Of a DNA stretch of 10,720 nucleotides, positions 1 through 10,413 are shown in pieces (the first letter of the stretch is position 1; each line of letters begins with the position of its first letter). Origin of the DNA: Alphaproteobacteria bacterium (GTDB lineage: Bacteria; Pseudomonadota; Alphaproteobacteria; Micropepsales; Micropepsaceae); the NCBI GenBank assembly GCA_015654715.1, contig JAATGK010000183.1, positions 1 through 10,720 of the forward strand. The letters are read 5' to 3'. Both the position numbers and the translations under genes were made by a program. The notes under the pieces were generated by a model. The model ran no database searches. It was given only the letters and a program-made list of their open reading frames with translations, and was not told where the DNA came from.

Positions 1-2849
1 AAGGCCTGCTTGATGCCGAATTCCATGCCCTTGAGCGGCTTACCGGCGCCCTGGGTCGGCGAGGTCACGGAGACGCAATGATTGCGAATGACGCCGTCCT
101 GGTCCGGTAGATCGCAACGAGTGACAGAACCGTTGGTGATGAAGCTCTGCACATCGATGTAGAACAGCGAGAAGCTGATGAGGTTCTGTTTGCCGTAATA
201 ATACTCGAACGACAGGTCATAGTTCGACGAACGCCACGGATCCAAAGCCGGCGAACCGGACGAACTGCCGCTCAGCACCGGGAACAGGCCGGTGACCGTA
301 TCGATGCCGTAGTTCAGCGTCAGACCGCCGCCCCACTGGCTGAGGTTGAGGTTCTGCGTGTTCTTGGCATAGCCAGCACGGACCTTGAACTCATCCGTCA
401 CGTCGACCGACGCATTGATCGCGGGAAGAACGTCCGTGTAGGAACGATTGACCACGGACGTGCCGTTGTCGGCCGCAAGCTGACCATAAGGCAACGGGTT
501 TCCGACCGCATGTTGAGTCACAGTGAGGTTGGTCTTGATAATGCGGACACCGGCATTCAGCGAGAACGGCACGTAGAGATCGCCATCCAGACTACCCTGC
601 ACATAGCCAGACTGCTGGTCCAGATCGACGTGCCAAGTGCCGCCCGGATCGACGTTGCGACGTTCGCCCGGGAACAACGCGTTTTGGAAGGCCCGCGTAT
701 TGTCCATCGCCTTGGGATCAAGATTGTACATCGTGATTCCGCCAATGCCGGCGAGGTTGCTGTACTGCCGCATGTTGCTGGAGACGATCGACGGCAACTG
801 CGTCGGGTTGAGGCCAGCGTAGTAATTGGCGGCGTAATAGGTGTTCACGCCAGTTATGGCGCCAGCCGTGCTCAACACGTTACCATGCGCATCGACGATC
901 GGAGCGGTGCTCGGCCCAGACCCGGCAATACACGTCGGCGCGTCATTCAAGGTTACGTCCGCCGCCTTCCACCGGACATAGCAGCCAGTGGCGCTGGGCG
1001 TGTAGGTGTAGCCGAGAACCTGATTAGTCAGGAATTGGCCGGGATGGTCCGGATCGGCCTTGTCACCCTTGATAACGGAGGCCGCCGTGTAAGCGCCATC
1101 GCCGCCGTACACCGGTGCATTGTAGTTGTAGTTCACGTTATCGGCAGCCCGGTTGCCCTGGCGGATGCCGAAATCGAACCGCACGCCGCTTTCCGGGAAG
1201 GTGTAGTGGCCATCGGCGCGCAACACGACACTCGACGTGGAACGCTCATGGTCGCCCTCGGCCGAGACTGTCTTGAGGGCATAATCGCTTTCGTTCTTGA
1301 TGGCCGCGGCATAGGTCGCGTCAGGGGTAATGGCCAGATGCGGGCCCGTCGTGTCGATGTCAACGTAATCGGCGTCCGACTGCACGCCGCCAGCGTTGAA
1401 CATGCGAAGACCGCCAACGCTCGAAACGCCCGCCGGGAATGTCGACGGGAACAGATACTGACCGGGCAGAAGCGATGACTGCTTGTTCCACTGCTGGCCG
1501 TTGGCGAGCGTGAACTGCAGATAGCTCTCTTCCAGGGTTTCGTGAGCGGCACCGTAAAGGGCGCGCACTTCGCCGTGGAAGTTGCCGCCGTTATCATACT
1601 TCATTTCGAAGTTGTAGTTGCGGGCGGTGTCTTTCTGGTGGTCGTTCTCGGAATAGGTCTCCATATCGCCGAGGTACTTACGATACTTCTGCGTCGTGTA
1701 TAATTCGTCCGGCGTGCCGTTCGGGCTGACGGTGACCCCCGTATCGCGCGATGCGAGCGGAACAAAGGTGGCGCCGAGCCAATTGGCGGAGTTTACCTGG
1801 TATCCGACCTGACGATTATGCTGGTCCATGTCGGTATAGAAGAAGTCAGCAACGACCGAGAAACCTTGGCCGAGATCGCCTTGCAGAGAGGCATTGAAAC
1901 CGACCTTCTCGCGTTCCATCATCTGCTGGAGCGCGGTGAAGTTTTCCGTGGTGTAGAAGGCGTGATTGGCCTTGCCGTCGCCATCGATGTCGACGGAGCA
2001 ATCGGCACCCGCCGGGAAAGCGAACGAACCGTCCGTATTGCGCGGGCAGCTAGTCGGATTCAAAACGTGGACAGCGCTAGGCAACGCAACGTTGTTGGGG
2101 CCCCACGACGAGAGAATGCCGTCCCACGATTTGGCCGAGTTCGAATCTTCACCCGCGAGTTGGCCGCCGTATTGGTCCATGCCATCCTGTGAGTTCGAAT
2201 TGGTCACGTCGGAGTATGTGCCGGCGACGAGCAAGCCCCACTTGCCCTTGTTGTAGCCGATCAGCGCGCTCGCTTCCGGCTCGTACTTGTTCGACTTCAC
2301 GCCGTGCGTTCCGTCGACGTTTGCCGAGAAGGTGAAGCCTTCATTGAGGTCGAACGGCCGCCGCGTTTTCAGGTTGATGGTACCGGTGATGCCGGCGTTC
2401 AGCATGTTGGCGGTCGACGATTTCACCACGTCGGCGCCGGAGAACAGTGTCGCCGGAATGTCGGTAAAATTCGGCTGCACGCTATCGATGGTGTCGGCAG
2501 TGACGAAAACTTCGCCATTCAACAACGTACCGACCTGCGGCAAACCACGAATCTCGACCGTGCTGCCTTCGCCGGCTGACCGATCGATCTGCACGCCGGT
2601 GATGCGCTGCAGCGAGTCAGAAATTGTCGCATCGGGGAGCTTGCCGATATCTTCGGCAACGATGCTGTCTTGGATGCTTGTTGCCGACCGTTTGAGGTCG
2701 ACGGCTTTGGCTTCCGACGCACGGATGCCAGTCACGACGACCGTTTCCAGCGGCCCGCCTGATTGCGCCCACACTGGCGTGACGCAGGCGGCCAGCGCCA
2801 AGGCAGCCACCGCAGTCTCGGTGCCCAAAAACATTCTTCGATTTCGCAT
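1..2849 (-). CDS. TonB-dependent outer-membrane receptor, Xanthomonas/Caulobacter type, 3' end outside window
   Basis: This is an outer-membrane beta-barrel that imports a large ligand using TonB energy. The frame is open without a stop from the ATG at 2849 to the left edge, giving about 949 codons; an estimated 150-200 C-terminal residues, including the last strands, are missing. A signal peptide is visible (basic start, hydrophobic residues 12-21, likely cleavage after VWA at 26-28). A TonB box-like ETVVVTG lies at 35-41. The plug follows, with DSIVAEDIGKLPDATISDSL, then ITGVQIDR and STVEIRGLPQ, all typical of this receptor class. The rest is Tyr/Asn/Gly-rich alternating barrel sequence. 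AGGGAAGGA sits 7 nt before the ATG and supports this start; a second in-frame Met at codon 6 is less well placed. It is divergent from the LacI-type regulator, with paired operators between them, so a carbohydrate ligand is inferred. The exact substrate is not readable. Confidence 0.93.
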   Translation of the reverse strand, partial: MRNRRMFLGTETAVAALALAACVTPVWAQSGGPLETVVVTGIRASEAKAVDLKRSATSIQDSIVAEDIGKLPDATISDSLQRITGVQIDRSAGEGSTVEIRGLPQVGTLLNGEVFVTADTIDSVQPNFTDIPATLFSGADVVKSSTANMLNAGITGTINLKTRRPFDLNEGFTFSANVDGTHGVKSNKYEPEASALIGYNKGKWGLLVAGTYSDVTNSNSQDGMDQYGGQLAGEDSNSAKSWDGILSSWGPNNVALPSAVHVLNPTSCPRNTDGSFAFPAGADCSVDIDGDGKANHAFYTTENFTALQQMMEREKVGFNASLQGDLGQGFSVVADFFYTDMDQHNRQVGYQVNSANWLGATFVPLASRDTGVTVSPNGTPDELYTTQKYRKYLGDMETYSENDHQKDTARNYNFEMKYDNGGNFHGEVRALYGAAHETLEESYLQFTLANGQQWNKQSSLLPGQYLFPSTFPAGVSSVGGLRMFNAGGVQSDADYVDIDTTGPHLAITPDATYAAAIKNESDYALKTVSAEGDHERSTSSVVLRADGHYTFPESGVRFDFGIRQGNRAADNVNYNYNAPVYGGDGAYTAASVIKGDKADPDHPGQFLTNQVLGYTYTPSATGCYVRWKAADVTLNDAPTCIAGSGPSTAPIVDAHGNVLSTAGAITGVNTYYAANYYAGLNPTQLPSIVSSNMRQYSNLAGIGGITMYNLDPKAMDNTRAFQNALFPGERRNVDPGGTWHVDLDQQSGYVQGSLDGDLYVPFSLNAGVRIIKTNLTVTQHAVGNPLPYGQLAADNGTSVVNRSYTDVLPAINASVDVTDEFKVRAGYAKNTQNLNLSQWGGGLTLNYGIDTVTGLFPVLSGSSSGSPALDPWRSSNYDLSFEYYYGKQNLISFSLFYIDVQSFITNGSVTRCDLPDQDGVIRNHCVSVTSPTQGAGKPLKGMEFGIKQA

Positions 2850-2972
2850 TTCGATTTCCTTCCCTCTAGTTACAAATTTCTTCGTTTTTCGAACCTTTGC
2901 GGCTCGCGTGTGCCTAGGTGGACCTGCGAATTGGTTGCCCCCCGGCATCGCCGCCACAATCTAGCCTCAATA

Positions 2973-2986
2973 GGAAAGCGCTTTCC
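2973..2986. promoter_or_regulatory. LacI-family operator palindrome, receptor-proximal (O1)
   Basis: GGAAAGCGCTTTCC is a perfect 14-bp palindrome with a central CG, the usual form of LacI/GalR operators. It lies 124 bp upstream of the receptor ATG and shares the AAAGCGCTTT core with the palindrome at 2995-3008. The centres are 22 bp apart, about two helical turns, so two repressor dimers could bind on the same face. The adjacent LacI-type regulator is the obvious candidate ligand. Confidence 0.75.
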
Positions 2987-2994
2987 ATCGCTAA

Positions 2995-3008
2995 GTAAAG
3001 CGCTTTAC
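2995..3008. promoter_or_regulatory. LacI-family operator palindrome, receptor-distal (O2)
   Basis: GTAAAGCGCTTTAC is a second perfect 14-bp palindrome. Its central ten bases are identical to those of the palindrome at 2973-2986, with only the outer two base pairs of each arm differing. It sits just downstream of the candidate receptor -10 element, as expected for a repressor site. Confidence 0.75.
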
Positions 3009-3249: not shown

Positions 3250-3263
3250 TGGTAGCGCTAACA
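3250..3263. promoter_or_regulatory. operator-like AGCGCT palindrome before the regulator start (O3)
   Basis: TGGTAGCGCTAACA has a perfect TAGCGCTA centre and imperfect outer arms, and shares the AGCGCT core of the two upstream operators. It ends one base before the ATG at 3264. Its centre is 255 bp from that of the operator at 2995-3008, so binding could give autoregulation or a DNA loop. Being non-coding only if translation starts at 3264, it weakly favours that start over the GTG at 3222. Confidence 0.45.
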
Positions 3264-4745
3264 ATGGTCGTTCAACTCCCACACAAGTCGCACGGCGTGT
3301 CCGAAATCGCATTGGATAGCATTGTCGATCCGGAAAATGCCCTCGTGCAGCTCGCGCGCACGCTCGATTGGCCGGGGCTCATAAAACGATTCGACCGGGA
3401 CCACTCCCTGCCCTTCGGCGGAGCGATTCTCTCCCGCCGGCTGCTTGTCGGCCTCATCATGTTGCGTCAGATATACGAGCTTTCTGACGGCGCACTTTTC
3501 AAGTTATGGTCTGAAAATCCCCATTTTCAGTACTTTTGCGGCGGCGAGCGCTTTCAGCGCCAGCCGCAATTTGATCAGTTCCTGCTTCGCATGCTTCCCC
3601 GCCTCATCGATGAGGAACTGCACACTTTGCTGGGTTCACGTACGGCCTCGGCACCGACGCCCCCGTCACCCGTTGCGCCCTCGGCTCTGGCGACCGCCGG
3701 CACGGAACACGTTCCGTCGCCCTCGTTGACGGGAACCAAGGCAGCGTCCCCGCCGAAAATCACCGACGTGGCAAAACGCGCCGGCGTATCGGTTAAGACG
3801 GTATCCCTGGTTCTCAATCGGCATCCCAACGTCAGCGAGCACACACGACGTAACGTACAAGAGGCGGTCAGAGCTCTCGCCTATAAGCCGAACGTCTTCG
3901 CACGGGGACTTGCGACGCTGCAATCCAATCTCGTGGCGATTCTCTATGCCGGCGAAGGCGAGTTCATATCTGCGCTGGAATCCGGCGCATTGGCGCGATG
4001 CCGTGAGGCGGGATTTCAAGTCCTTGTCGAATCGCTCGATCCTTACGCAAATAACATCGCCGAACAAACGCAGCGACTGATCTCGAGAACCTCGTTGCAT
4101 GGCGTGGTCGTTGTTCCCCCGCTGTGCGACATTCCTGAAGTCATCAACGTCTTGGCCGCTTCGAATACCAAGCTCGTGACAATCTCATCCGGCCGGCCAA
4201 ACGCGCAGATACCAAATGTCGGCGTCGACGACTTGCAGATCGGCTATGACGTCACGGCCCATCTTCTGAAGATCGGCCACCGCCGGATCGGCTTTATCGC
4301 CGGCTTACCGGATCATTATGCCGCCGCCAAACGCTGGGACGGATACTGTGCAGCATTGAAAGCTTTTGGCGTACCGGTCGACGAGAAACTCTTCCAGCAG
4401 GGCGAATTCACGCTCGAATCCGGGCGCCACGCAGCAAAGACCCTGCTTCGAATGAAGAAGCGGCCGACCGCGATTTTTGCGGCCAGCGACCAGATGGCTG
4501 CGGGCGTGCTCGGCGAGGCTCTGAGCATGGGCATAACCGTGCCGGACCAGTTGTCTGTCGCAGGCGTCGACGACTCCGTTATAGCCAAGATCGTTTGGCC
4601 GCAGATGACGACCTGCAACCAGCCCATCAAAAAAATGGCCTACGCCGCGCTTTCAATCCTGCTGTTGGGCGATGAAGATGAAAGTCCCCAGAACCTGGTG
4701 TTGGACCACAAACTCGTCGTCCGCGGCTCGACGTCGGCACCCTAA
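3264..4745 (+). CDS. Chimeric regulator: IS5-type transposase N-terminal domain fused to LacI-family repressor
   Basis: A 493-aa DNA-binding regulator, about 150 residues longer than a normal LacI-family protein. Residues 18-124 resemble the N-terminal domain of IS5-type transposases: DPENALVQLA, LSRRLLVGL, YELSDGALFKLWSENP and the signature HFQYFCGGERFQ at 86-98. No catalytic DDE domain follows. Residues 126-163 are a Pro/Ala/Ser/Thr-rich linker. Residues 166-185 (ITDVAKRAGVSVKTVSLVLN) are a classic LacI helix-turn-helix, 207-222 the hinge helix region, and 223-493 a full periplasmic-binding-protein-like sensor with RRIGFIAGLP, ASDQMAAGVL and SVAGVDD. The frame is unbroken throughout. The ATG was preferred over an in-frame GTG at 3222 because an operator-like palindrome directly precedes it; neither start has a clear Shine-Dalgarno. 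It probably represses the divergent receptor through the AAGCGCTT palindromes and binds an unknown sugar. Confidence 0.92.
   Translation: MVVQLPHKSHGVSEIALDSIVDPENALVQLARTLDWPGLIKRFDRDHSLPFGGAILSRRLLVGLIMLRQIYELSDGALFKLWSENPHFQYFCGGERFQRQPQFDQFLLRMLPRLIDEELHTLLGSRTASAPTPPSPVAPSALATAGTEHVPSPSLTGTKAASPPKITDVAKRAGVSVKTVSLVLNRHPNVSEHTRRNVQEAVRALAYKPNVFARGLATLQSNLVAILYAGEGEFISALESGALARCREAGFQVLVESLDPYANNIAEQTQRLISRTSLHGVVVVPPLCDIPEVINVLAASNTKLVTISSGRPNAQIPNVGVDDLQIGYDVTAHLLKIGHRRIGFIAGLPDHYAAAKRWDGYCAALKAFGVPVDEKLFQQGEFTLESGRHAAKTLLRMKKRPTAIFAASDQMAAGVLGEALSMGITVPDQLSVAGVDDSVIAKIVWPQMTTCNQPIKKMAYAALSILLLGDEDESPQNLVLDHKLVVRGSTSAP
3315..3638 (+). mobile_element. transposase-derived N-terminal segment retained inside the LacI-type gene
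   Basis: This part of the regulator gene encodes the IS5-type transposase N-terminal domain (DUF772-like). After the well-kept YFCGGERFQ signature, family members usually continue with a Ser/Thr-Arg-Trp-Arg-rich stretch leading to the catalytic core. Here FLLRMLPRLIDEELHTLLG stands in its place and the reading frame runs on into the linker. No terminal inverted repeats or target-site duplication were recognised, so this is a captured domain rather than a mobile insertion sequence. Confidence 0.7.
3702..3717. repeat. inverted repeat at the transposase/LacI junction
   Basis: ACGGAAC (3702-3708) and GTTCCGT (3711-3717) are perfect 7-bp arms around a 2-bp centre, inside the DNA that encodes the linker. 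A TTG codon at 3726, nine bases after it, is in frame and would start a 339-aa protein, the usual LacI length. The repeat could be a remnant of the fusion event, a regulatory dyad or chance. Confidence 0.4.
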
Positions 4746-4826
4746 ACACCCTGCGGGCGGCGAAGAGGACTCAAATCCAAGCGAGTTCATGTTCCGGGTA
4801 GATTGTGCCGCCGAACGTCGGGGAAC

Positions 4827-4861: not shown

Positions 4862-6106
4862 ATGACACAGATTACTGATCGCGTGTGGCTCGACGGCATT
4901 CGTGCCGAGTTGCTCGGCAACATCCTTCCGTTTTGGATGCGCCATGCCCCAGATCAGGCGGAAGGTTTTAACAGCGTTGTCGATGAATACCTTAATGTCG
5001 ACAATGCAACGCCCCGCGCCAGCGTCGTCATTTCGCGTATTTTATGGACGTTTTCAGTTGCAGCCCGTCGCTTCGGCCCTGACTACCGGCCAATGGCCGA
5101 GCGCGCCTACAAATACCTCATGGACAAATTCTGGGATCGCAAATACGGCGGCCTTTATTGGATGGTGGACAGCGACGAAACTCCCGTATCGACACGCAAA
5201 CAGATATACGGCCAAGCGTTCGGCATTTACGGCCTGGCCGAATATCATCAACTGACCGGAGACAAAGAGAGCCTCAGCACCGCCCGCCAGATGCACGCCT
5301 TGATCGAGCAGCATAGTGCGGATCAAAGATATCGTGGCTACATCGAAGCGCTTGGACAAGACTGGACTCCGTTACGCGATATGCGGCTGTCGGAGAAGGA
5401 TATCAATTGTCCAAAAACCATGAACACGCATCTCCATGTGATGGAGGCCTATACCAATCTCCTGCGCGCCGATCCCGACGAAGCACTGAAGGTCGAGCTG
5501 TCCAAACTCGTCGACCTCACGCTTGATCGTATACTAGCCCCCGACGGGAGCCACTTGTGCCTGTTTTTTGACGAAGAGTGGACCTCGCAATCGGATACTA
5601 TTTCTTTTGGTCACGACATCGAGGCCAGTTGGCTGATCGTCGAGGCGGCCGAAGTTTTGGGGTCTCCGCAACAGTTGGAACGCGCCCGGAACGCAGCGAT
5701 AAGGCTTGCGGACTCTGTTCTCCGCAACGGCCTCGATCCGAACGGCGGTGTTAATTACGAAGCCCGGAGCAACAGGCCCATGATCGACGGCACCAAGCAC
5801 TGGTGGGTTCAGGCCGAAGCGCTCGTTGGCTTCTTTAACGCCTATCAGCTTACCGGCGACGACAAATTTCGCCATGCCGCTTTGCAAATTTGGAGATTCA
5901 TCCAGGAACGAATAGTCAATCGCGACCATGGCGAGTGGCATGCCAAACTGGCTCCCGACGGACACGTCCTCACCATGAACGAAGACCCAGAAGCGTATCT
6001 CATCGGTCCGTGGAAATGTCCTTATCACAATGCGCGGGCGTGTTTTGAGATGCTGGCGCGGCTCACGGCTAACTCCGCCGGCGTTGATGAAACGGCGTCC
6101 ACCTAA
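4862..6106 (+). CDS. AGE-family epimerase, probable cellobiose 2-epimerase
   Basis: A 414-aa cytoplasmic enzyme of the N-acylglucosamine 2-epimerase superfamily with an (alpha/alpha)6-barrel fold. Cellobiose 2-epimerase (EC 5.1.3.11) converts the reducing-end glucose of beta-1,4-disaccharides to mannose. Family motifs appear in order: SRILWTFS (58-65), KQIYGQAFGIYGLAEY (113-128), NTHLHVMEAYTNL (188-200), SFGHDIEASWL (248-258), KHWWVQAEALVGFFNAY (312-328) and GPWKCPYHN (382-390). By comparison with characterised enzymes, H251 and H389 are the likely general acid/base pair, with R59 and one of H190/H192 assisting. Length is normal. The ATG at 4862 is chosen because GGAG ends 9 nt upstream; an in-frame GTG at 4805 would add 19 residues without family similarity. 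It follows the regulator by 116 bp on the same strand. GPWKCPYHN points to cellobiose rather than N-acyl sugars, but mannobiose or free-sugar activity is possible. Confidence 0.88.
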   Translation: MTQITDRVWLDGIRAELLGNILPFWMRHAPDQAEGFNSVVDEYLNVDNATPRASVVISRILWTFSVAARRFGPDYRPMAERAYKYLMDKFWDRKYGGLYWMVDSDETPVSTRKQIYGQAFGIYGLAEYHQLTGDKESLSTARQMHALIEQHSADQRYRGYIEALGQDWTPLRDMRLSEKDINCPKTMNTHLHVMEAYTNLLRADPDEALKVELSKLVDLTLDRILAPDGSHLCLFFDEEWTSQSDTISFGHDIEASWLIVEAAEVLGSPQQLERARNAAIRLADSVLRNGLDPNGGVNYEARSNRPMIDGTKHWWVQAEALVGFFNAYQLTGDDKFRHAALQIWRFIQERIVNRDHGEWHAKLAPDGHVLTMNEDPEAYLIGPWKCPYHNARACFEMLARLTANSAGVDETAST

Positions 6107-7482
6107 CACTCGACAACATTGACGGCGAGGCCGCCAAGGGCGGTTTCCTTGTATTTGGTGCGCATGTCGTTACCGGTCTGACGCATAGTTTCGATCACGG
6201 CGTCGAGCGAAACCACATGGCGCCCGTCGCCCTGCAGCGCCAGATAGGCCGCATTGATCGCCTTGACGGCCCCCATCGTATTGCGCTCGATACACGGGAT
6301 CTGCACCAGCCCTTTGATCGGATCGCAGGTCAGACCGAGATTGTGCTCCATGCCGATCTCAGCGGCGTTCTCGATTTGCGCGTTGCTGCCGCCAAGCGCC
6401 GCCACCAATCCCGCAGCCGCCATCGAGCAGGCGACGCCCACTTCACCCTGGCAGCCCATCTCCGCTCCCGAAATCGAGGCGCGCGATTTGTAGAGAAACC
6501 CAATCGCCGACGCGGTCATCAAGAACGTGCGCGAGCCTTCGCGCGTCGCGGTCGGGATGAAGACCTCGTAGTATTTGAGGACGGCCGGCAGCACGCCGGC
6601 GGCGCCGTTGGTCGGCGCAGTGACGACCCGCCCGCCGGCTGCATTTTCCTCGTTGACCGCCAGCGCATAAAGGCTGACCCATTCAAACACCAGCGAGGGA
6701 TCGGAGCGCGGGCCGCGCGCCATAAGGTTTTCGTGCAGGTGCTTGGCGCGGCGCGAAACGTTGAGGCCGCCGGGCAAGACGCCGTCCTTGTGGCAGCCGC
6801 GGTCGATGCATTTGAGCATCGCCAAGCGCACGGAGTCGATGAAAGCCTCGGTCTCAACGCGCGAACGCCACGCCGCCTCGTTCGCCCACATGATCTCGGC
6901 AAACGAGAGCTTGTGGCGTTCGCCGGTGGCCAGCAACTCGGTCGCAGAGTGGAACGGATGGACGATCGCGCTGTTGATCCGGATGGGCGCCTGCCCCTTA
7001 ACGGTGATGGCGCCGCCGCCGATCGACAAATAGGTGCGGCTGAAGGGCACGCCGTCTTCGTAAACCGCGGTAAAAACCATCGCGTTGGCGTGATCCTTGA
7101 GGAACTCGCCGGTGCGGAACACCACATCCTCGCGCCGGAACGGGATCTCGGCTGTGCCGGCCAGCGTGAGGCGGCCTTTGTCGCCGACCGACGCCACCAG
7201 TGCCGCCACATCATCGGGATCGACCGTCTCGGGCAGCCAGCCTGACAAGCCCAGCATCACCGCATCGTCGGTGGAATGGCCGCGGCCGGTCAGGGCCAAA
7301 GAGCCGTATAAATCGCATTTGAGCGACACCGGAACGCCGCGCTCCAACGCCGCTTCGGCAAAGGCGTGCGCGGCGCGCATCGGCCCGACCGTGTGCGAAC
7401 TCGAGGGCCCGATACCGATCGTGAACAAATCAACGACACTCAAAGGCAAAGATTTCGACGCATCAAACGAACGGATGGACAT
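6103..7482 (-). CDS. sdaA: L-serine dehydratase (L-serine ammonia-lyase), single-chain iron-sulfur type
   Basis: A 459-aa cytoplasmic enzyme that deaminates L-serine to pyruvate and ammonia (EC 4.3.1.17) using a [4Fe-4S] cluster instead of pyridoxal phosphate. Both halves are fused in one chain: the beta part begins with [20 protein letters not shown] (15-34), and the alpha part carries [13 protein letters not shown] (288-300), [20 protein letters not shown] (339-358), [10 protein letters not shown] (379-388) and IPCIERN (395-401). C344, C386 and C397 are the expected cluster ligands. The chain ends in NVVEC, so C459 is its last residue; in the Legionella type-2 enzyme the terminal Cys occupies the cluster's open site. 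The length is full, with no frameshift. The ATG at 7482 precedes the family's N-terminal motif, but no strong Shine-Dalgarno is seen. The gene is convergent with the epimerase and their stop codons overlap. Confidence 0.96.
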
Positions 7483-8086
7483 GGGCTATCGCAGCAGGGT
7501 TCGGTCACCTCGTAGCATGCCGCCCCTAGCTGTGAGAGAGCAAGCTGGCGGCAAATGTGGTCGATTCCAACATAACAGCCATGCAGACGTCAGAAACGGG
7601 GCGCGGCTACCCCTGGGTTGGGCGGCACCGTGCGGCGCGCGAAGGTTTGGCGCGCTTTACTTGCCGGTCTGTTGGCGCTGATGAAGCGACGGCTACCAAA
7701 GAGCGCCTGACATTCCACAACATTGACGGTGAGGCCGCTGCGCCCGACCACAATCGCTGGTCCCTGTAACGGGTGAAATGCGCCAGGGCTTGATTTTGGT
7801 TTTTCAAGAGTCGCGATTTTTCTCCCCCTCCTTCCCCCTGACAAAGGTGACCGGACCATTCATTTTCAAGGTCCCCGCGTGGGGAGTGGGCGGCAAAACT
7901 ACCAGAATCGAATTCGAATCCCTCTAAACTGTACATTCGTTTTTCGCCAGCTTGCGTCGTGCGAATGCGGCGCAGCGACGTCTTCTCCGGCGCTGTCAAA
8001 GAGCCTTTTAGAAATGGGAAGCGAGGCAGACAATTTCAAGACCCCTTCGCCTGCCTTCGCTGCTACGCCGGCTGCGAAGCCGAGCG
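7483..8086. other. 604-bp region without a recognised gene
   Basis: This lies between the sdaA start and the kinase stop, both genes being on the minus strand. It contains the 33-bp sdaA-tail copy and presumably the sdaA promoter, which could not be placed convincingly. Short open frames cross it on both strands, for example minus 7607-7999, but none has a recognisable family motif or good ribosome-binding site. The 14-bp hairpin CGGCTGCGAAGCCG (8069-8082), just after the kinase stop, lacks a T-run. Confidence 0.6.
7706..7738 (-). pseudogene. 33-bp copy of the sdaA 3' end
   Basis: Bases 7706-7738 match 6102-6134, the last codons of sdaA, at 29 of 33 positions in the same orientation, exactly 1,604 bp apart. 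The minus-strand reading gives GLTVNVVEC, against GLAVNVVEC in sdaA, but the stop codon TAG is replaced by CAG. Two of the four differences are silent third-position changes (Val, Glu). This suggests the tail of a lost sdaA paralogue or tandem copy. Homology is not visible further upstream. Confidence 0.55.
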
Positions 8087-9541
8087 CTATTCCGCTGCCG
8101 TCCACTTCACGGTGGCGCGCAAGCCGCCGCCGTCGCGGTTTTCGAGGATCAGGGTGGCGGCTTGGCTTTTGGCGATGGCGTCGGCGATGGACAGGCCGAG
8201 GCCGGTGCCACCGGTGGTACGGCTGCGCGAACGATCGAGGCGCGTGAACGGCTGCAACACCTCGCCGAGCTGGCTCTCGGGAATGCCGGGACCTTCGTCT
8301 TCGATCACGAGTTCGACGGTACCATCGCTCGTGCGGATGGAAACTTGCGCCTTCTCGCCGTACTTCACCGCATTGTCGATCAGATTGCGCAAGAGGCGGC
8401 GCACCAGATTGACCTGCATCGTTACCGTGGTGCGCGGCGCCTCGATAAAAGTCACATCCTTGCCGAGACCGCGGAACTCTTCCACCACGGTATCGGCCAG
8501 CGCCGAAAGATCAACAAGTTGCTTCGGCTCGGTGGAATGGCCGAGACGGGCGAGGCCGAGGATTTCTTCGACCATCGCAGTCATCTCGTCGATGGTTTCG
8601 ACGAACTTGGCGCGCTCGGCTTCCGGCTCGACAGATTCGGCGCGGATGCGGAGCGAGGCGAGCGGCGTGCGCAGGTCGTGACCGATGGCACTCAACATGC
8701 GATCCTTTTCCGCCAACAGATCGCGCACGCGCTGCGCCATGGTGTTGAAAGAAGAGATCGCCACCTGCACTTCGCGCGGACCTTTCACGGCAATGGGCTC
8801 GAACTTCTCCTGCGGCTGCAGCACTTGAGCGGCCTCGGCCAGAATGCGGAGCGGCCGCGAAATGCGCGAGGCCCAGAACAACGTCGCGCTGAGCAGGATC
8901 ACGAACAAGGCGATCTGCGACAAGAACAGCGGATTGAGGATCAGCGGAAACGGCCGGAAGACATGAAAGCGGCCGACCAGCCAAATCCCGTCCGGCAACT
9001 GGGCGGCCAAGCGAATGTCGTCGTTGGTGCGATCGGGCGGCGGGCCATCAAACCCTTGGCTGGCCGGCTGGATCCGGTCGCCAGGCCACGGCATCGGTCC
9101 GCCGGAACCTTCAGCCCCGGGCGGCGGCGCGCTGAGCGGCAACAGGTGCCAGCCGCTGTGTTCGTGGCGGAACACCAGCAAAGCCAAGAACGGCACCGAG
9201 CGTTTCTGCAACGCCGTCGACAGTTCGGCTTCGATGTCCTGCTGACGGCCGAACGGGGGCATGTACATATCGCGGGTCAGCCAGAAGCGTTCGCCCACCG
9301 TTCTGGACGCCACCATGAAGCTCTCGCGGCGGTCCGCCGGCATCTGCGAGACACGGCTGGCGACATCGGTGAAACGGCGGATCGCCGGTTCGACCACCCT
9401 GGACGTCTGCCACTGGTCGATGACGTTGCGCGTCAGGAAGATGGCGAAGAACTGCGCCAGGAACAGGGCCGCAATGATCAAGAGCGCCGTTTGCCCGAAC
9501 GTGCTCCATGAGCCAAGAGTGAAGCGCGCGCGCCCGATCAC
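8087..9541 (-). CDS. EnvZ-like membrane sensor histidine kinase
   Basis: A 484-aa inner-membrane kinase expected to phosphorylate the response regulator encoded just upstream. It has a short cytoplasmic N-terminus, TM1 (about 16-37), a sensor loop (about 38-200), TM2 (about 202-224), a HAMP domain (about 226-278), then a dimerisation/phosphoacceptor helix with SAIGHDLRTPL and H288 as the predicted autophosphorylation site. The ATPase domain shows the N box NLIDNAVKYG (386-395), G1 DEGPGI (415-420) and G2 GGTGLGL (444-450). The sensor loop is Pro/Gly-rich around 138-170 and matches no sensor fold I recognise. The GTG start at 9541 gives a GTGA overlap with the regulator's stop and has GAGG suitably upstream; a TTG at 9583 is less likely. 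The signal is unknown. Confidence 0.93.
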   Translation of the reverse strand: MIGRARFTLGSWSTFGQTALLIIAALFLAQFFAIFLTRNVIDQWQTSRVVEPAIRRFTDVASRVSQMPADRRESFMVASRTVGERFWLTRDMYMPPFGRQQDIEAELSTALQKRSVPFLALLVFRHEHSGWHLLPLSAPPPGAEGSGGPMPWPGDRIQPASQGFDGPPPDRTNDDIRLAAQLPDGIWLVGRFHVFRPFPLILNPLFLSQIALFVILLSATLFWASRISRPLRILAEAAQVLQPQEKFEPIAVKGPREVQVAISSFNTMAQRVRDLLAEKDRMLSAIGHDLRTPLASLRIRAESVEPEAERAKFVETIDEMTAMVEEILGLARLGHSTEPKQLVDLSALADTVVEEFRGLGKDVTFIEAPRTTVTMQVNLVRRLLRNLIDNAVKYGEKAQVSIRTSDGTVELVIEDEGPGIPESQLGEVLQPFTRLDRSRSRTTGGTGLGLSIADAIAKSQAATLILENRDGGGLRATVKWTAAE

Positions 9542-10296
9542 ACCAACTGTACCTCGGTCACGAAACTGTAACCGCCGCCCCAAACCGTTTTTATATAAGT
9601 CGGATTCTTGGAGTCGGGCTCGATCTTCTTGCGCACGCGGCTGATGAGATTGTCGATCGAGCGATCGAACGCCGAAGCCTCGCGCCCTTGGGTCAGATCG
9701 AGCAACTGATCGCGCGACAACACAATGTGCGGGCGTTCCAGAAAGGCGAGCAGCAGATTGAACTCGCCGGTCGACAGCGGCACCACGACGCCGTCGTCGC
9801 CGAGGAGTTGCCGGGCGCCGGTCTTCAGCTTCCAGGTGCCAAACTGCATTGTCTTCTGAACGGGAAGGCGGCGCGACCGCGGTACCGACTGGGCCCGGCG
9901 GATCACCGCCTTGGTGCGCGCCAAGAGCTCGCGGGGCGCAAACGGCTTGACGACATAATCGTCGGCACCCATCTCGAGCCCGATGATGCGATCAGTCTCT
10001 TCCGACTTGGCCGACAACAGGATGGTCGGAATGTCGAGCTTTTCGCGGATCGAACGGCAAAGCGAGAGCCCGTCTTCGCCCGGCATCATGATATCGAGAA
10101 TGATGAGATCGAATTTGTAACGGCTGAGGAGATGACGGGCTTCGAGCGCGTGGCTTGCCATCGTCACACGGAATCCGTTGCGCTGCAGATAATGGCCGAG
10201 CGGATCGCGAACGCTGCGCTCATCCTCCACCAAGAGGATGTGATAGCCCTCCTCCGGCTTGAGGGCCATTTCCTGGCCGTCCAATTGCTCGGTCAT
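9538..10296 (-). CDS. OmpR/PhoB-family response regulator
   Basis: A 252-aa transcription factor and partner of the coupled kinase. The receiver domain (about 19-135) has acidic-pocket E24/D25 in LLVEDE, phosphoacceptor D68 in LIILDIMMPGEDG, switch-region S95 in LLSAK and K117 in VVKPF. A winged-helix DNA-binding domain follows (about 150-250), with PLSTGEFNLL, LSRDQLL, the recognition-helix segment DRSIDNLISRVRKKIE and the wing YIKTVWGGGYSF. The ATG at 10296 was chosen because GGGGGG lies about 7-12 nt upstream. An in-frame ATG at 10314 would add six residues but lacks a Shine-Dalgarno. Its stop overlaps the kinase start (GTGA), so the pair is cotranscribed and translationally coupled. The targets are not evident; EnvZ/OmpR is the closest familiar pair, without proof of orthology. 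Confidence 0.95.
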   Translation of the reverse strand: MTEQLDGQEMALKPEEGYHILLVEDERSVRDPLGHYLQRNGFRVTMASHALEARHLLSRYKFDLIILDIMMPGEDGLSLCRSIREKLDIPTILLSAKSEETDRIIGLEMGADDYVVKPFAPRELLARTKAVIRRAQSVPRSRRLPVQKTMQFGTWKLKTGARQLLGDDGVVVPLSTGEFNLLLAFLERPHIVLSRDQLLDLTQGREASAFDRSIDNLISRVRKKIEPDSKNPTYIKTVWGGGYSFVTEVQLV

Positions 10297-10413
10297 CACA
10301 TCGCCCCCCGACATGAGGACAGGGCGAGCTGCGGCGCAGCGACTCCGCCGGTACGCGCCCCAATACGCGAACTGTACACCCCTAGCTCTCCCGCTTGGCG
10401 CGATACGATATCG

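What the first reader, a model, noticed from the sequence alone, without database searches (positions are those of the whole stretch)
3264..4745. Transposase N-terminal domain fused in frame to a LacI-family repressor
Seen: one uninterrupted frame joins about 107 residues resembling an IS5-type transposase N-terminus (HFQYFCGGERFQ signature) to a complete LacI-type HTH, hinge and sugar-binding domain. Known: that transposase region is an N-terminal, probably DNA-binding domain, and LacI proteins normally begin at their HTH. Inference: a transposase domain was captured by a repressor and now adds a second DNA-contact or multimerisation module. I know of no characterised example of this architecture.
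Basis: partly seen in the sequence, partly recalled or inferred. Interest (0 to 1): 0.85.

Follow-up and report, generated by a model that had tools for sequence, protein, structure and literature searches.

The report
Sugar repressor with captured transposase domain
A soil bacterium's sugar-sensing gene repressor carries, fused to its front end, the non-catalytic front domain of a jumping-gene enzyme, and relatives show that this borrowed piece was probably captured once and has been kept under selection, so it probably does something useful for gene control.

Summary
In detail: one frame (ATG 3264 to stop 4745) joins about 109 residues of an IS5-group transposase N-terminus (NCBIfam NF033578, E 5e-22; Pfam DUF772) to a complete LacI-family regulator. 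It is not a one-off. The architecture occurs in 9 of 69 genomes of the window's genus (named Rhizomicrobium by one matching record): 11 genes in three classes, A (window), B (9 loci) and C (transposase domain plus LacI HTH, no sugar-binding domain); protein searches gave 38 records. No fusion was seen in 27 other genomes of the order or in the class sample. Trees of both halves agree and put the fusions on one side of one branch, beside unfused LacI relatives from the same genomes: one capture. The captured domain is under purifying selection (dN/dS 0.06-0.18 in three sister pairs), folds confidently, has lost the transposases' W-R pair, is not basic, and lacks the catalytic domain. Likely targets are local: a TonB receptor and sugar genes, with LacI-type operators; in class B always a pair 152-157 bp apart (9 of 9 loci). 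Best reading: a domesticated transposase domain serving as an assembly (oligomerisation) module of a sugar-utilisation repressor. The origin is well supported; the domain's function is inferred.

The parts
3264..4745 (+). DUF772-LacI fusion gene, class A (493 aa), ATG start
   Evidence: open frame; Pfam and NCBIfam matches; start opposite a Met of P0003, read by eye
3306..3632 (+). captured transposase N-terminal domain (residues 15-123), all-helical in the model, ends before the transposase catalytic domain
   Evidence: NF033578 E 4.9e-22 and DUF772 E 2.3e-07; AlphaFold2 pLDDT 79-96 per block of ten over residues 21-120
3633..3752 (+). Pro/Ala-rich linker (residues 124-163), predicted disordered
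   Evidence: pLDDT below 50 for residues 127-159; residues 124-160 are 16-36% identical within class A
3759..3893 (+). LacI helix-turn-helix (PF00356)
   Evidence: E 9.7e-17 in the whole protein
3894..3917 (+). predicted hinge helix (residues 211-218)
   Evidence: secondary structure of the full-length model; mean pLDDT 55 for residues 211-220
3933..4733 (+). periplasmic-binding-protein-like effector domain (residues 224-490)
   Evidence: Peripla_BP_3 E 2.7e-32
2973..2986 (.). LacI-type operator candidate GGAAAGCGCTTTCC (perfect palindrome)
   Evidence: 4 sites of this rule in the window against 0.22 expected from mononucleotide shuffles, one of the 4 inside the epimerase gene
2995..3008 (.). 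LacI-type operator candidate GTAAAGCGCTTTAC (perfect palindrome), 22 bp from the first
3250..3263 (.). operator-like site TGGTAGCGCTAACA (one mismatch) directly before the fusion's ATG; a similar site precedes the class C gene
   Evidence: L041 8426 AGGTAGCGCTACCA
3..2849 (-). divergent TonB-dependent receptor gene, likely target, cut by the window edge; ATG at 2849 read by eye
   Evidence: PF00593 E 9e-14 and Plug E 1e-10 on the frame 3-2957
4862..6106 (+). AGE / cellobiose 2-epimerase-like gene, possibly co-regulated
   Evidence: PF07221 E 2.4e-40; NF041848 348 bits, below its cut-off of 800
2948..2983 (-). first copy of a 36-nt element found upstream of both the TonB receptor and the epimerase gene
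   Evidence: the repeat finder I1, 75% matched
4779..4814 (+). second copy of that 36-nt element
   Evidence: its 16-nt core, a pattern made from these two copies, has no other match without mismatch in the genome held

Best explanation
The gene encodes a LacI/GalR-type repressor whose ancestor, within Rhizomicrobium, captured in frame the pre-catalytic N-terminal domain of an IS5-group transposase, most likely once, directly in front of its HTH. The event was followed by duplication into a class A lineage (window), a class B lineage (nine loci) and a class C lineage that lost the sugar-binding domain. SHOWN by computation: the architecture, its conservation, the agreeing trees, purifying selection on the domain in class B, absence of the catalytic domain and of the W-R pair, and linkage to TonB-receptor and sugar genes with LacI-type operator candidates. 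INFERRED: the LacI part binds AAAGCGCTTT-type operators and represses uptake and processing of a saccharide until an inducer binds. The captured domain works mainly through protein-protein contact, as a dimerisation/tetramerisation module on a flexible linker: in A and B it would join two LacI-type dimers so that two or more operators are bound cooperatively or looped (22 bp apart in A, 152-157 bp apart in B); in C it would replace the lost effector domain as the dimeriser, giving an inducer-independent repressor.
For: Domain identity. Fusions in 9 of 69 genus genomes, 11 genes; 3 class A, 31 class B and 4 class C protein records, of which one is the same protein as a genome locus and four more are 92-99% identical to one. 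Both trees place the fusions on one side of one branch: LacI part 17 rows at 97/92, transposase-domain part 23 rows at 92/91; G083 is basal in B in both. dN/dS of the domain 0.06 (G010/G041), 0.06 (G048/G061), 0.18 (G000/G007). Fold confident alone and in the full-length model, linker disordered. Mean net charge of the domain -0.8 (A), -0.2 (B), -1.8 (C); W110 with R111 in 20 of 21 transposase rows and 0 of 49 fusion rows. Class C lacks the effector domain. Synteny. Operator pair 152-157 bp apart in 9 of 9 B loci; a 150-159 bp pair in 0 of 14 stretches of the unfused sister group, 0 of 88 other loci and 6 of 900 shuffled loci.
Against: The B operator spacing (152-157 bp, about 14.5-15 turns at 10.5 bp) is not strictly phased and may be fixed by the promoter that it spans; the range tested was chosen after seeing it, and the control loci are mostly shorter than the B loci and partly overlap. 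Operators 21-22 bp apart also occur at unfused sister loci (L036, L068, L069), so the tandem pair of class A is not special to fusions. LacI-type dimers with several operators exist without any extra domain (recalled). Within class B dN/dS of the domain rises to 0.48 in distant pairs and it evolves faster than the HTH and effector domain. Class C DNA was seen in one genome only; its four relatives are protein records. Selection on the class A domain rests on protein identity only.
Confidence: 0.55

Rival explanations
1. The captured domain is a second DNA-binding module: it contacts a sequence beside the LacI operator, as it presumably contacts transposon ends in the transposase, and so extends specificity or binds IS ends elsewhere in the genome.
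For: The transposase domain is generally presumed to be DNA-binding (recalled). A 36-nt element lies in the same orientation upstream of both the TonB receptor and the epimerase gene in the window, and its 16-nt core has no other exact match in the genome held (the pattern was made from those two places). Class B promoters hold further conserved blocks besides the operators. R113 is kept in 47 of 49 fusion rows.
Against: The domain is on average neutral to acidic and the W-R pair is gone in 49 of 49 fusion rows. In the window's genome the domain profile finds only the two fusions; of the nine genomes with fusions one (G010) also holds a related transposase at E up to 1e-8, so there are few IS ends to bind. 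The transposase domains are acidic too, so charge argues only weakly.
Confidence: 0.25
2. A passive tail: the IS fragment only brought a start codon and is tolerated without function.
For: The junction lies just before the parent's HTH and the linker evolves freely.
Against: The domain has dN/dS 0.06-0.18 in three sister pairs, core residues unchanged in 49 of 49 fusion rows (W36, R59, L67, W82, P86, Q89, G93) and a confident fold. Class C lost the effector domain but kept this one.
Confidence: 0.06
3. A sensor or partner-binding module: the domain binds another protein or a ligand and feeds a second signal into the repressor.
For: Folded, conserved, near-neutral domain on a flexible linker.
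Against: No partner candidate was sought. The Sel1-repeat gene seen at 8 of 9 class B loci has no counterpart in the window's 10.7 kb, so no partner common to A and B is evident.
Confidence: 0.12
4. A recent IS insertion, assembly join or frameshift artefact in this one genome.
For: The genome held is a 518-contig assembly, 74% complete.
Against: Independent assemblies carry the same architecture, including a one-contig genome; 38 protein records; synteny.
Confidence: 0.02

Closest known systems
LacI/GalR family repressors (CcpA, PurR, RbsR type)
   Same: HTH PF00356, hinge helix, Peripla_BP_3 effector domain, CG-centred palindromic operator candidates, linkage to sugar uptake genes
   Different: These begin at the HTH; here about 160 residues precede it. 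Class C has no effector domain.
IS5-group transposases (NCBIfam NF033578; Pfam DUF772 domain)
   Same: N-terminal domain, profile positions 8-100; in class B homology runs to just before the first catalytic Asp
   Different: No DDE catalytic domain, W-R pair absent, one or two genes per genome beside host regulatory sites
Unfused Rhizomicrobium LacI sister group (L002, L027, L028 and others)
   Same: 48-50% identical LacI part for L002, L027, L028, L014; in one 29-row clade with the fusions
   Different: No transposase domain; L002 and L027 sit beside an alpha-L-arabinofuranosidase-type gene instead (Pfam run on the L002 neighbour only)
Eukaryotic transposase-domain captures (for example the Tc1/Mariner HTH in F-box genes, PMC12062965, start of abstract in the search listing only; KRAB-transposase fusions, recalled)
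   Same: Host gene acquires a transposase domain and the new gene spreads
   Different: Here bacterial, an IS5-group domain, and the host part is a sugar repressor. Bacterial domesticated TnpB-like repressors (TldR, recalled) come from RNA-guided nucleases and are not LacI fusions.

Membership tests
LacI/GalR family | LacI-type HTH | tested here: met
   PF00356 60.9 bits, cut-off 27
LacI/GalR family | Periplasmic-binding-protein-like effector domain | tested here: met
   PF13377 112.6 bits, cut-off 26.5; not in class C
LacI/GalR family | HTH at the extreme N-terminus (usual, not strictly defining) | tested here: not met
   HTH begins near residue 165 of 493
LacI/GalR family | Palindromic CG-centred operator near the regulated gene | tested here: met
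   sequence evidence only, binding not tested
LacI/GalR family | Effector-controlled DNA binding as a dimer | not testable with these tools
   needs protein
IS5-group transposase | N-terminal DUF772-type domain | tested here: met
   NF033578 E 4.9e-22 for the domain (far below the whole-protein cut-off, as only positions 8-100 of 419 match), DUF772 above its cut-off
IS5-group transposase | DDE catalytic domain | tested here: not met
   profile match ends at position 100 of 419; class B homology stops at the first VVVDT motif
IS5-group transposase | W-R-x-R-x-G motif after the domain core | tested here: not met
   W110+R111 in 20 of 21 transposase rows and 0 of 49 fusion rows; G115 in 21 of 21 against 12 of 49 (all class B); R113 kept in 47 of 49
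IS5-group transposase | Terminal inverted repeats, multiple mobile copies | tested here: inconclusive
   an imperfect 36-nt inverted pair flanks the gene but lies at two promoters; the domain profile finds only the two fusions in this genome, which is 74% complete

The most novel reading that the evidence does not exclude
A domesticated bacterial transposase domain has become an assembly module for transcription regulators. It multimerises LacI-type repressors so that they bridge operators about 155 bp apart, and in class C it is the sole dimeriser of a new kind of minimal, inducer-free regulator made only of a transposase domain and a LacI HTH.
Probability: 0.33. Interest if true: 0.8.

Novelty: new variant of a known kind. 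Interest (0 to 1): 0.63.

Why it matters
Capture of transposase parts by host regulators is well described in animals and plants but hardly in bacteria (recalled; the paper searches made gave no case of this architecture). Here one capture has fused and unfused sisters in the same genomes, a derivative that lost the original dimerisation domain, and mapped operator candidates. It makes testable how an insertion-sequence domain becomes a regulatory module, and what a transposase N-terminal domain that has no solved relative by sequence does.

Tried and rejected

Recent IS insertion or assembly artefact: rejected. IS-end targeting: weak, since related transposases are rare in these genomes. Cross-lineage spread: no fusion among 27 other genomes of the order, 2 of which match the domain, or at the loci of the 19 other class genomes with a match, of 385 sampled. 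Limits: one locus per genome was checked, at most 11 candidates per genome were scored, and 2 of the 19 loci showed no frame with the motif used. Viral contigs: 2 loci; L134 has no LacI motif in the frame, L135 gave no frame with the motif. Named genome scan with the window protein: 2 loci, L039 and L040, no LacI motif in the frame.

A tRNA site beside the class C integrase: none found. Promoter and terminator scan: at chance level. The simple gene caller gave the fusion's place at L045, L126 and L129 to other overlapping frames, so the fusion is not in its list there; its position comes. The 150-159 bp range was chosen after seeing the B spacing; its 14 sister stretches are 12 loci (L132 and L133 are longer views of L002 and L027), and its 88 other loci partly overlap each other and include class A and C loci.

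Rows dropped: the LacI tree kept 54 of 84 profile hits (duplicates and matches under 250 residues removed, which drops the cut class B gene of G000) plus 8 of 34 class A/B protein records. The careful tree used 35 of those 62 rows. The domain tree used 32 distinct ORFs of 62 hits plus 12 of 38 protein records. The test that rejects class A standing apart from class B plus the sister group (p-AU 0.027) was chosen after the tree was seen.

Full report
1. One open frame runs from GTG 3222 (likely start ATG 3264) to the stop at 4745. The first 125 residues match an IS5-family transposase model (NF033578, positions 8-100 of 419, E 4.9e-22) and DUF772 (E 2.3e-07); the rest is a full LacI-type regulator. 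P0003, 80% identical over its aligned length, has a Met opposite ATG 3264 (read by eye).

2. It is a family. In the window's own genome there is a second fusion (G000:C127, 44% identical over residues 16-342, cut by a contig end). Profiles of the whole protein and of the domain find fusions in 9 of 69 genomes of the genus, 11 genes in all: one class A (window), nine class B, one class C. Protein searches with the N-terminal regions gave 3 further class A records (the fourth row is the window itself), 31 class B (all 31 with LacI, 30 of 31 with DUF772 in the precomputed domains) and 4 class C. Of these 38 records P0025 is identical to the protein of the G041 locus, and P0006, P0009, P0034 and P0037 are 92-99% identical to a genome locus. 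P0025 carries the only organism name seen, Rhizomicrobium sp.. The window's genome itself is unnamed; the genus name is taken from that record. None of 27 other genomes of the order holds a fusion. In a sample of 385 genomes of the class, 19 others match the domain, and none of the loci looked at has the LacI motif in the same frame.

3. One capture. A careful tree of the LacI part puts the 17 fused rows in one clade (97/92), inside a 29-row group with 12 unfused Rhizomicrobium LacI proteins, some from the same genomes (G000, G007, G010); the quick 62-row tree agrees (93). The tree of the transposase domain puts all 23 fused rows, class C included, on one side of a branch from 21 transposase-type rows (92/91, just under the star limit). 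In both trees A and B separate and G083 is the first branch of B; in the domain tree C is sister to A (100/99). In class B the homology to transposases runs through the domain to just before the first catalytic Asp, then a short linker leads into the parent's HTH. So the captured piece is the pre-catalytic part of the transposase.

4. It is kept. In class B the domain has dN 0.06 and dS 0.90 (G010/G041), 0.04 and 0.70 (G048/G061), and 0.06 and 0.35 (G000/G007). The same pairs give ratios of 0.00-0.18 for the HTH, 0.02-0.09 for the effector domain and 0.07-0.36 for the linker. More distant pairs have higher ratios for the domain (up to 0.48 within B, up to 0.62 across classes) with dS mostly near or over 1; the method (Nei-Gojobori) is rough there. 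The domain therefore evolves faster than the HTH and effector domain in most pairs. In class A the domain is 59-82% identical, the linker 16-36% and the effector domain 66-86%; in class C the domain is 62-98% and the linker 24-88%. The domain is predicted as an independent all-helical fold (mean pLDDT 83 with its ends, 85 of 139 residues at 90 or more), tied to the LacI part by a disordered linker.

5. What changed in the domain. Against 21 transposase-type rows the core residues W36, R59, L67, W82, P86, Q89 and G93 persist in 49 of 49 fusion rows (4 A, 40 B, 5 C; the 40 B rows include near-duplicates). The pair W110-R111, in 20 of 21 transposase rows, is in none; R111 alone is in none, W110 in one B row. 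G115, in 21 of 21 transposase rows, is kept in 12 B rows, and R113 in 47 of 49. The mean net charge is near zero or negative in all groups, transposases most of all. This speaks, weakly, against DNA contact. Class C is the strongest hint to function: it ends at the hinge, so it has no effector domain through which LacI proteins dimerise (recalled), yet it keeps the captured domain and the HTH in five proteins whose domains differ by up to 38%. A LacI HTH needs a partner to read a palindrome, and the captured domain is the obvious candidate.

6. Targets. In the window a TonB-dependent receptor lies divergently and an epimerase-like gene follows. At the class B loci a TonB receptor related to the window's recurs in 8 of 9 (L130 has a different TonB receptor), a Sel1-repeat gene in 8 of 9, an AGE-type epimerase gene in 7 of 9, and a GH130 (mannooligosaccharide phosphorylase type) gene in 5 of 9 (Pfam run on one member of each); the window's epimerase-like protein did not fall in the same cluster as theirs. 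G010 and G062 have another gene, without a Pfam match where tested (L044), in the epimerase's place. Pfam supports AGE and GH130, but NCBI's finer models score below their cut-offs, so the substrate is a guess: a manno- or glucooligosaccharide. LacI-type palindromes lie between the window's TonB gene and the fusion (2973, 2995), directly before the fusion's ATG (3250), and before the class C gene. In class B two operators stand 152-157 bp apart in 9 of 9 loci, in otherwise diverged sequence: TGAAAGCGCTTACC and AGAAAGCGCTTAC in seven, variants in L130 and L131. The pair lies upstream of the TonB receptor in seven; in L131 it overlaps the annotated receptor start, and in L130 other genes lie between. 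Controls: no such pair in 14 stretches of the unfused sister group or 88 other loci (mostly short, partly overlapping), and in 6 of 900 shuffled loci. In the window's genome RAAAGCGCTTWC falls at five distinct places, three of them at the two fusion loci (the reversed control gives 3 matches).

7. Mechanism. Most likely the protein is an inducer-controlled repressor of a saccharide uptake locus, with autoregulation, in which the captured domain joins repressor units. Steps shown: architecture, descent, selection (class B), linkage, operator candidates. Steps inferred: DNA binding, repression, inducer, autoregulation, oligomerisation, looping. Against looping: spacings are not strictly phased, and unfused relatives also have tandem operators 21-22 bp apart (L036, L068, L069).

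8. Literature. DUF772 with LacI occurs in one paper of the library; its passages concern programmed frameshifting in IS1182-type genes, and LacI only as a lab tool (PMC3711429, passages). Eleven papers mention DUF772 (listing); three hold Rhizomicrobium and LacI (listing). Searches for transposase-LacI fusions and for bacterial transposase domestication gave no case of this architecture in the listings seen; two searches listed only 15 of 2,320 and 10 of 444 papers. The nearest parallel seen is eukaryotic: a Tc1/Mariner HTH captured by F-box genes (PMC12062965, start of abstract in the listing). Subscription papers are mostly not in that library.

9. Verdict. A real, conserved transposase domain, captured probably once, in a LacI-type regulator, with a derived class that lost the sugar-binding domain. 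It is a new variant of a known kind. Origin: about 0.9 confident. Oligomerisation as the main role: about 0.5.

Noticed in passing
window 2948-2983 (-) and 4779-4814 (+): A 36-nt element, 75% matched, in the same orientation upstream of both the TonB receptor and the epimerase gene; its core TAGATTGTGNCGNCGA (made from these copies) has no other exact match in the genome held. Possibly a shared cis element or the domain's own site, possibly chance.
   Followed up: partly
L041:8449-11099: The class C gene of G007 lies between a divergent TonB receptor gene and a tyrosine-integrase gene; no tRNA was found between.
   Followed up: partly
L043 11900-11913 and aligned B loci: Between the two class B operators further blocks are conserved, among them a weaker operator-like TGATAACGTTCACA and a GAGTG block.
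   Followed up: no
L044:11473-12546 and L127:7154-8287: A gene of about 360-380 aa, without a Pfam match where tested (L044), stands in place of the epimerase gene at two class B loci.
   Followed up: no
L036:1035-1090: An unfused sister LacI locus has three operator-like sites at 21-bp steps.
   Followed up: no
L105 (G101, another genus of the family): A close transposase relative with a broken frame; only described.
   Followed up: no
window 6106-10314: Ordinary neighbours: L-serine ammonia-lyase (sda_mono) and a histidine kinase / response regulator pair on the minus strand.
   Followed up: no
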